Shown: positions 59,319 through 59,771 of the stretch, piece by piece | How positions within the stretch are numbered: the stretch's first letter is position 1 | Layout: every line of letters begins with the position of its first letter | Assembly (NCBI RefSeq): GCF_012489685.1 | Contig: NC_080046.1 | Span: 38,217,176 to 38,281,175, forward strand | Origin: Lotus japonicus | Taxonomy: Eukaryota; Streptophyta; Magnoliopsida; Fabales; Fabaceae | Direction: 5' to 3' | DNA: 64,000 nucleotides | Made by a program: the position numbers and the translations under genes | The notes under the pieces: model-generated | Told to the model about the DNA's origin: nothing | What the model saw: the letters and a program-made list of their open reading frames with translations, nothing else | Database searches by the model: none

Positions 59319-59771
59319 ATGATGTCGATGTGCGACTGGTTCGAGATGGTCGCCCCTACGGGGGGGACCAGATTTGAGTTGCTTGATACAGACACCCCGG
59401 GCTCGTGGGTGGTCGACCCCGCAGGTCACCGAGCCATTTACAAGGGGCGTATTATGGAGGACCACGTGGACCGAATGGGGAACCTGATGCAAGGAGTCTT
59501 GAGACGCCACACGGTTAGCTTCAACCTACCACCGGGCGTGCATTGTGGCCCTGGAGTTGTGGTACCGCCACCTTCATCTGAGGACGAGGAGGACCCTTCA
59601 GAGGAGTTGCCTGTAGGAGGTGCTTCGTCTGAGTCTAGCTCAGCCACCGTCGCGACTGCTGCTGTCTTGGGTTCGGGTACAGTACCCGTGGAACCCGCTG
59701 CGAGGACCGATGCCGTCATCGACGTGATCGTCTTGGATTCAGATTCAGACGACGATCATGGTGACGCGTAG
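59319..59771 (+). CDS. LTR-embedded ORF of element F (unrecognised conserved protein)
   Basis: ATG-ATG-TCG-ATG follows TTTTTGTCAG directly. 150 codons, uninterrupted: CDWFEMVAPTGGTRFELLD, a GSWVVDPAGHRAIY block, GRIMED, VSFNLPPGVHCGPG, a proline/acidic/serine linker and the tail DAVIDVIVLDSDSDDDHGDA. The tail fits a SUMO-interacting motif (hydrophobic core then acidic/serine run). The conserved N-terminal 80 residues look like a compact domain I cannot name. No signal peptide, membrane segment or zinc motif. Cytosolic or nuclear location is an inference from the tail only. The best-preserved copy in the window. Confidence 0.65.
   Translation: MMSMCDWFEMVAPTGGTRFELLDTDTPGSWVVDPAGHRAIYKGRIMEDHVDRMGNLMQGVLRRHTVSFNLPPGVHCGPGVVVPPPSSEDEEDPSEELPVGGASSESSSATVATAAVLGSGTVPVEPAARTDAVIDVIVLDSDSDDDHGDA

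What the first reader, a model, noticed from the sequence alone, without database searches (positions are those of the whole stretch)
59319..59771. A conserved, unrecognised protein-coding ORF inside the LTRs of a chromovirus-like family
F (59319-59771), B (18128-18574) and A (2071-1562, minus) carry the same ORF near the 3' end of their long LTRs. The LTRs have diverged with many indels, yet the ORF keeps ADW, PSGG/PTGG, the VVDPAGHRAIY-type block, GRIMED, LPPGVHCGPG and an acidic tail. Most plant LTRs are non-coding, so a coding LTR is unusual. It would be duplicated with every insertion and remain in solo LTRs, offering a way to disperse a small regulatory protein gene.
Basis: partly seen in the sequence, partly recalled or inferred. 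Interest (0 to 1): 0.9.

Follow-up and report, generated by a model that had tools for sequence, protein, structure and literature searches.

The report
Protein gene inside a retrotransposon's LTRs
A large family of jumping genes in what is evidently the legume Lotus japonicus carries a small protein gene, apparently with its own promoter and introns, inside its end repeats, and selection has kept that protein intact; such repeats are usually thought to carry no gene of their own, so this is an unusual and testable case.

Summary
F, B and A carry one homologous ORF inside ~4-kb LTRs of a Ty3/gypsy family, evidently in Lotus japonicus. Genome searches, capped at 150 listed matches each, gave 134 of 150 F-type and 141 of 150 A-type matches without internal stops. 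In 39 copies chosen by flanking LTR DNA, indels are 8-9-fold rarer in the ORF than beside it; 62% of differences fall at codon position 3; single-copy variants are near neutral (N:S 90:46), shared ones are not (37:57); dN/dS is 0.22. Raw nucleotide identity, however, is no higher than in the flanks.

New here: the LTR looks like a whole gene: TATA box, two leader exons free of ATG (37 of 39), conserved GT-AG signals, an acceptor abutting the ORF's ATG (80 of 82). Two RefSeq models fit that junction. No Pfam or named non-Lotus relative was found. The model is a small beta domain plus acidic, SUMO-interacting-motif-like tail. Function is inferred: an accessory, perhaps counter-silencing, protein. 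Closest kinds: Tekay 5' extra ORFs; MMTV sag as LTR-contained parallel.

The parts
56152..60254 (+). F 5' LTR (4,103 bp) holding the whole putative gene
   Evidence: TGTGAGACCC...GGGGTGTTACA ends; aligned with the C LTR pair
56857..56866 (+). TATA box CTATAAATAG, presumed LTR promoter
   Evidence: TATAAATA or TATATATA in 12 of the 13 alignable LTRs, TATAATTA in L116; promoter activity not tested
56888..57005 (+). predicted leader exon 1 (about 118 nt; start assumed about 22 bp after the TATA box)
   Evidence: no ATG; followed by donor GAG|GTA; fast-evolving
57006..57667 (+). predicted intron 1 (GT...AG)
   Evidence: GT and AG kept in 39 of 39 copies
57668..57745 (+). predicted leader exon 2, 78 nt, no ATG in F
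   Evidence: 78 nt in 39 of 39, no gaps among 37 compared; N-termini of RefSeq P0004 and P0006 align here, P0007 roughly
57746..59318 (+). predicted intron 2, ending ..TTTTTGTCAG directly before the ORF's ATG
   Evidence: donor GT 39 of 39; AG directly before the start codon in 80 of 82 protein-selected copies
59319..59771 (+). LTR ORF, copy F (150 aa)
   Evidence: selection tests
59715..59756 (+). C-terminal VIDVIVLDSDSDDD, SUMO-interacting-motif-like
   Evidence: 83 of 90 proteins fit the pattern, against 15% of shuffled tails
60439..60470 (+). TACTAAC branch-point-like site and ..AACAG acceptor just before the gag ATG (60468)
   Evidence: same in C, similar acceptor in A
60468..63758 (+). 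gag-pol of element F (gag, protease, RT, RNase H, start of integrase)
   Evidence: Pfam
18128..18574 (+). LTR ORF, copy B, in the 3' LTR 15117-19033
1562..2071 (-). LTR ORF, A 3' LTR (LTR 956-4850), broken before its tail
10159..10646 (-). LTR ORF, A 5' LTR (LTR truncated at the N run), frameshift and stop
43313..43475 (+). remnant of the ORF with a large internal deletion, C 5' LTR
49864..50019 (+). same deleted remnant, C 3' LTR

Best explanation
The LTR of this Lotus Ty3/gypsy family is itself a gene. Transcription probably starts at the TATA box in the LTR. Two ATG-free leader exons are spliced to an acceptor that abuts the ORF's ATG, giving an mRNA whose first AUG starts a 150-222 aa accessory protein. 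The same second donor could instead join an acceptor just before gag, and unspliced RNA would be the genome. The protein (small beta domain, then a disordered acidic tail with a SUMO-interacting-motif-like end) is kept by purifying selection while the element replicates and decays almost neutrally after insertion. SHOWN: ORF, copies, selection, conserved splice-site sequences. INFERRED: promoter use, splicing in vivo, translation. GUESSED: function, most likely a nuclear trans-acting regulator or counter-silencing factor, working like VANC of VANDAL transposons, perhaps by binding SUMO-modified host proteins. Because the whole gene sits in the LTR, 3' LTRs and solo LTRs could make it too.
For: Purifying selection: F-B dN/dS 0.32, N-terminal part 0.22. 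Of 39 copies found by LTR-tail DNA, 24 have the full ORF open; indels 0.97/kb in the ORF against 8.65 and 7.76/kb in the flanks, although substitutions are denser in the ORF. In 38 of these 40 (with F), codon-position differences are 20/18.5/61.5%; single-copy variants N:S 90:46 plus 3 stops, shared variants 37:57, neutral expectation about 2.4:1, Fisher p = 8e-5. dN/dS 0.22 (half-sample range 0.19-0.26) for pairs with flank divergence of at least 0.04. Abundance: 134 of 150 F-type and 141 of 150 A-type listed matches have no internal stop; several A-type pairs ~8.7 kb apart have equal scores, suggesting recent activity. Gene layout: TATA, donors, acceptors and 78-nt exon 2 conserved; exons 1+2 ATG-free in 37 of 39, while introns 1+2 hold 30-59 ATGs in 13 LTRs. 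N-termini of RefSeq P0004 and P0006 align to exon 2 and continue at the ORF acceptor. Gag acceptor with TACTAAC in F and C. Tail motif 83 of 90.
Against: No RNA, ribosome or peptide data were available; RefSeq models are predictions, and their own loci were not examined. Splice-site counts come mostly from copies chosen for an intact ORF. Element C has the same ORF deletion in both LTRs, so it moved without an intact ORF. dN/dS of the ORF (about 0.2) is laxer than gag-pol (0.06-0.10). The tail is no more constrained than the rest by shared N:S (12:17 against 41:59 and 31:48, in the protein-selected set), and the strict SIM pattern fails in 7 of 90, including P0010, P0011, P0012 and P0018. AlphaFold models are weak overall (mean pLDDT 55.8 and 57.2) and have no significant Foldseek match. 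No named relative outside Lotus.
Confidence: 0.7

Rival explanations
1. The ORF is a real selected gene, but its product is a replication, integration or particle accessory, not a factor acting on host silencing.
For: For sunflower Tekay 5' extra ORFs the authors raise insertion preference as well as RNA-silencing modulation (PMC11728184, passages). Nothing here distinguishes the functions. Gag-pol and ORF may share one spliced leader.
Against: The acidic, SIM-like tail and movement of element C without the ORF fit a trans-acting factor at least as well.
Confidence: 0.3
2. The region is conserved for a DNA or RNA function (enhancer, packaging signal), and the open frame is incidental.
For: Raw identity of the ORF equals its LTR flanks, which are themselves well conserved.
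Against: Third-position excess, dN/dS 0.22 and indel depletion in the ORF relative to both flanks.
Confidence: 0.03
3. The copies are merely young: an ORF open by chance in a recent founder has not had time to break.
For: Many A-type copies have equal scores; protein-based hit lists favour intact copies; 11 of 39 flank-selected copies are disrupted.
Against: Flank-selected copies still give dN/dS about 0.2 at synonymous divergences of 0.12-0.47, and A and F, saturated at dS, share the frame over the N-terminal domain.
Confidence: 0.03
4. The ORF is a captured fragment of a host gene carried as a passenger.
For: LTR elements do capture genes (PMC13317346, passages).
Against: No host homologue in Pfam, PDB sequences or the protein database beyond the Lotus and unnamed copies; purifying selection within the element.
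Confidence: 0.08

Closest known systems
Tekay/Del-lineage 5' extra ORFs (ORF0 of Retrosat2, RIRE3 and RIRE8; sunflower Tekay 13-2 5'aORF)
   Same: Long-LTR or Tekay-type elements with an extra ORF upstream of gag-pol, no known domain, diverging strongly between families (PMC3485330, PMC11728184, passages read). Retrosat2 has comparable LTR ends (TGTCACACCC...GGGCGTGACA; GGGGTGTTACA at the 3' end here).
   Different: The Retrosat2 text treats LTR, ORF0 and ORF1 as separate parts and reports ORF0 only from grasses. Here the ORF lies wholly in the LTR, so it is present twice per element and would remain in a solo LTR. Sequence homology to ORF0 was not testable (no ORF0 sequence in hand).
MMTV sag (superantigen gene in the LTR)
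   Same: A whole protein gene inside the LTR (recalled; only listed papers, unread, that concern it).
   Different: sag lies in U3, upstream of the LTR's own start site (recalled); here the ORF lies about 2.4 kb downstream of the TATA box, so an LTR could express its own copy. No homology was tested or is claimed.
CRM group A centromeric chromoviruses
   Same: A plant chromovirus whose coding sequence enters the LTR (PMC3059260, passages).
   Different: [quoted passage not shown] here a separate complete ORF.
VANC of VANDAL transposons
   Same: Proposed working parallel: a TE-encoded protein that directs hypomethylation of related elements (PMC13317346, passages).
   Different: VANC belongs to DNA transposons; no similarity was tested or is claimed.

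Membership tests
Ty3/gypsy LTR retrotransposon | gag, protease, RT, RNase H, integrase in that order in one polyprotein | tested here: met
   Pfam on F (to the integrase zinc domain) and A (complete, with rve) gag-pol
Ty3/gypsy LTR retrotransposon | paired LTRs with TG..CA ends and adjacent primer site | tested here: met
   C pair 96-98%; F, C and A LTR ends followed by TTGTGG(T)ATCAGAGC-like sequence; matching it to initiator tRNA-Met is recalled
Chromovirus, Tekay clade | type II chromodomain at the integrase C terminus | tested here: inconclusive
   No Pfam chromodomain hit in the last 100 or 140 residues of A or B; PDB sequence search of A's end gave nothing significant; resemblance to the Tekay type is recalled
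Chromovirus, Tekay clade | RT phylogeny placing it with Tekay/Del | not tested
   no reference RTs were fetched
Tekay 5' extra ORF (ORF0/5'aORF) | sequence homology to a described ORF0 or 5'aORF | not tested
   reference sequences not in hand; protein searches returned only Lotus and unnamed-contig relatives
Tekay 5' extra ORF (ORF0/5'aORF) | ORF 5' of gag-pol, same strand, no known domain | tested here: met
SUMO-interacting-motif protein | hydrophobic core next to acidic/Ser run | tested here: met
   83 of 90, against 15% of shuffled tails; 7 of 90 fail; the motif definition is recalled
SUMO-interacting-motif protein | binds SUMO | not testable with these tools
   needs a binding assay
Counter-silencing factor (VANC-like) | lowers methylation or raises expression of its own family | not testable with these tools
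   needs plants

The most novel reading that the evidence does not exclude
Every LTR of this family, 5', 3' or solo, is a self-contained spliced gene for a trans-acting protein that shields the family from SUMO-dependent host silencing, so dead elements and solo LTRs keep working for the living ones; the unusually fast divergence of the mature-mRNA segments (leader exons and silent sites of the ORF) reflects escape from host small RNAs.
Probability: 0.15. Interest if true: 0.9.

Novelty: new variant of a known kind. Interest (0 to 1): 0.72.

Why it matters
LTRs are normally thought of as control sequences. A complete selected gene inside one changes what a solo LTR is: not only a stray promoter but possibly a source of an element-encoded protein. 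It makes an old question testable in a model legume: do retrotransposon families share trans-acting factors, made even by dead copies, that oppose host silencing? It also warns annotators that LTR-masked sequence can hide selected genes and that some RefSeq 'uncharacterized proteins' in Lotus look like LTR genes.

Tried and rejected
Chance or non-coding conservation: rejected by the codon and indel tests. A first dN/dS run on 80 sequences (78 protein-selected genomic copies plus F and B; L021 and L058 dropped) is biased toward intact copies, and grouping pairs by dS, done, inflates the ratio at low dS. I therefore used flank-selected copies (38 of 40, L100 and L102 dropped for short coverage) and grouped by flank divergence. 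There the rise to 1.25 rests on 3 pairs, and the 141 pairs in the 0.2-0.5 bin probably include badly aligned flanks. One search's downstream flank figures run past the LTR end and are not used. The eight within-element LTR pairs together show 25.5 nonsynonymous and 12.5 synonymous differences, near neutral.

Exons 1-2 as coding: exon 2 is open in the ORF's frame in 35 of 37 copies and looks helix-like, but only 2 of 39 copies have any ATG in exons 1+2, exon 1 has stops in many of 13 copies, and codon positions show no protein pattern in that frame. Another frame of exon 2 has ratio 0.43 and a third-position excess, but in F a stop stands just upstream in unspliced sequence and there is no ATG; unexplained.

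Papers: the listings showed no paper announcing a plant LTR-contained ORF; most listed papers were not opened, and only the open-access library was searched. I did not see the Retrosat2 figures.

Other species: the held genome has no relatives, so no search of other legume genomes was possible.

Full report
WHAT WAS CLAIMED AND WHAT IS THERE. It is there: F 59319-59771, B 18128-18574, A 2071-1562 minus. tblastn against the window also finds A's other LTR (10646-10159 minus, frameshift and stop) and both LTRs of a further element C, where the same large deletion has removed most of the ORF. LTR limits come from pairing and end motifs: F 56152-60254, B 15117-19033, C 40049-43963 and 46531-50509, A 956-4850. 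The neighbouring polyprotein is Ty3/gypsy gag-pol. The window lies in a 553.7-Mb genome, evidently Lotus japonicus because all nine named relatives of the ORF are Lotus japonicus proteins; eight further hits come from unnamed contigs.

IS IT MORE THAN AN OPEN FRAME? At raw nucleotide level, no: F and B are 0.70-0.78 identical in the ORF windows and 0.64-0.93 elsewhere in the LTR. The coding tests decide. F-B dN/dS is 0.32 (N-terminal part 0.22); F-A 0.15 with dS saturated. A genome search with the F protein listed 150 matches (its cap; 6512 first-look candidates), 134 without internal stops. The A-type protein listed 150 (7414 candidates), 141 without stops, many with equal scores and several as pairs about 8.7 kb apart, the spacing expected of the two LTRs of one element. 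These lists favour intact copies, and frameshifts are not counted in them.

So I took copies by the 465 bp of LTR that follow the ORF: 40 scored of 4171 candidates, namely F and 39 others. Of the 39, 24 have the whole ORF open, 11 are disrupted by indel or stop, 3 align over only part of it and 1 over none. Against F, indels per kb are 8.65 upstream, 0.97 in the ORF and 7.76 downstream (158, 16 and 145 events, of which 25, 4 and 1 are multiples of three; copies are related, so events are not independent). Mismatches per kb are 54, 69 and 43; the downstream value is lowered by the selection. In 38 usable copies, differences by codon position are 20/18.5/61.5%. Variants in a single copy are nearly neutral (90 nonsynonymous, 46 synonymous, 3 stops; expectation about 2.4:1), shared ones are not (37:57; Fisher p = 8e-5). 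With pairs grouped by flank divergence, dN/dS is 0.17-0.27 in all bins but the closest (1.25, 3 pairs); for flank divergence of at least 0.04 it is 0.22, half-sample range 0.19-0.26. This is the mark of a gene selected while the element replicates and released after insertion. Gag-pol is stricter (0.06-0.10).

HOW IT IS PROBABLY EXPRESSED. Aligning F, B, both C LTRs, A and ten further LTRs (L114 and L117 not alignable in the relevant part, leaving 13) shows a TATA box about 2.4 kb upstream of the ORF, two donor sites, and acceptors before a 78-nt exon and before the ORF's ATG. In a larger set, 12 of 51 inputs (A among them) were dropped as unalignable or incomplete and one more lacked an exon. 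In the 39 left (F, B, C and 36 fetched copies) both donors are GT and the inner acceptor AG in 39 of 39, exon 2 is 78 nt in 39 of 39, and exons 1+2 are ATG-free in 37 of 39; intron 1 alone averages 8 ATGs, and introns 1 and 2 together hold 30-59 in the 13 LTRs. Random windows of that size are ATG-free 3-18% of the time per LTR, so this is notable but not overwhelming for related sequences. AG stands directly before the ORF's start codon in 80 of 82 sequences (L028 and L037 lack it). Most of these copies were chosen for an intact ORF; C, whose ORF is deleted, keeps the signals too. In F the CAG is 59316-59318 and the ATG starts at 59319. The N-termini of RefSeq proteins P0004 and P0006 align to exon 2 of the window's LTRs and then continue at this acceptor; P0007 fits less exactly. 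Their own loci were not examined. Before gag, F and C have TACTAAC...TTAACAG|AACATG and A has TAACAG|ACGATG. Thus one promoter and leader could feed either protein. Splicing in vivo is inferred. Spliced isoforms of plant LTR elements are known (PMC7730604, passages).

WHAT THE PROTEIN IS. Two types: about 150 aa (F, B) and about 222 aa (A). They share the N-terminal ~78 residues, a Pro/Ser/acidic linker and an acidic tail. AlphaFold2 with 20 sequences gives a beta-strand core (about residues 15-69; ten-residue blocks 21-70 at pLDDT 74-87) and little confident structure elsewhere except a hairpin near 154-196 of the long form (means 55.8 and 57.2). No significant fold match, no Pfam, no PDB sequence (best E 0.61), and only Lotus or unnamed-contig relatives in a database of 5.8 billion proteins, searched by shared words. 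The tail (VIDLIVLDSDSDDD and variants) fits a SUMO-interacting-motif pattern in 83 of 90 proteins against 15% of shuffled tails, but shared N:S there (12:17) is like the other regions, and the three 221-222-aa RefSeq proteins tested fail the strict pattern although they end in similar [V/M]DLDTEMITVDSDS stretches. I therefore give the SUMO idea as a lead.

FUNCTION, BY INFERENCE. Nothing here shows what it does. It is small, partly acidic and low-complexity, so far known only from one genus, selected in the replicating lineage, and dispensable in cis for element C, which moved without it. That fits a trans-acting accessory protein. Countering host silencing, as VANC does for VANDAL elements (PMC13317346, passages), is my first choice; the authors of the sunflower work also suggest RNA-silencing modulation for Tekay extra ORFs (PMC11728184, passages). 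A replication or integration accessory is a serious rival.

COMPARISON. Extra ORFs 5' of gag are known in Tekay-type chromoviruses: ORF0 of Retrosat2, RIRE3 and RIRE8 in grasses, and a 400-aa ORF in sunflower (PMC3485330, PMC11728184; passages). CRM group A coding runs into the 3' LTR (PMC3059260, passages). MMTV sag is a gene in an LTR (recalled). A separate, spliced, selected gene wholly inside a plant LTR did not appear in my search listings. I call it a new variant of a known kind.

UNEXPLAINED. Leader exons diverge about twice as fast as the introns between them (mean p-distance 0.22 and 0.19 against 0.08-0.11), and silent sites of the ORF (dS 0.12-0.23) exceed flank divergence (0.03-0.07). 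Fast change in mature-mRNA segments could be mutational (methylated, GC-rich ORF; purine-rich exon 2) or an arms race with small RNAs.

Noticed in passing
56888-57005 and 57668-57745 and homologous stretches in L115-L163: Leader exons evolve faster than their introns, yet exon 2 has a fixed length of 78 nt in 39 of 39 copies, without gaps among the 37 compared.
   Followed up: partly
43313-43475 and 49864-50019: Element C carries the same ORF deletion in both LTRs and only a short open gag-pol part, so it looks like a non-autonomous derivative that moved without the ORF.
   Followed up: partly
proteins P0014, P0016, P0017: Three short relatives share a change of sequence after the N-terminal domain and may mark a third subfamily with a truncated protein; P0014 is UniProt I3SYR4 (that such Lotus entries come from cDNA is recalled).
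   Followed up: no
10757-10856: A run of about 100 N truncates A's 5' LTR and stands where B's 5' LTR would be; probably an assembly gap.
   Followed up: no
G000 A-type copies listed: Dozens of A-type ORF copies fall into groups of equal score, often as ~8.7-kb pairs, suggesting a very recent burst.
   Followed up: no
10938-11423: The gag region of element B starts differently (MVSPDRMAKAIATMIEAMMNQ...) from F, C and A (MVNTNQLAEMMATM...), so B may be recombinant.
   Followed up: no
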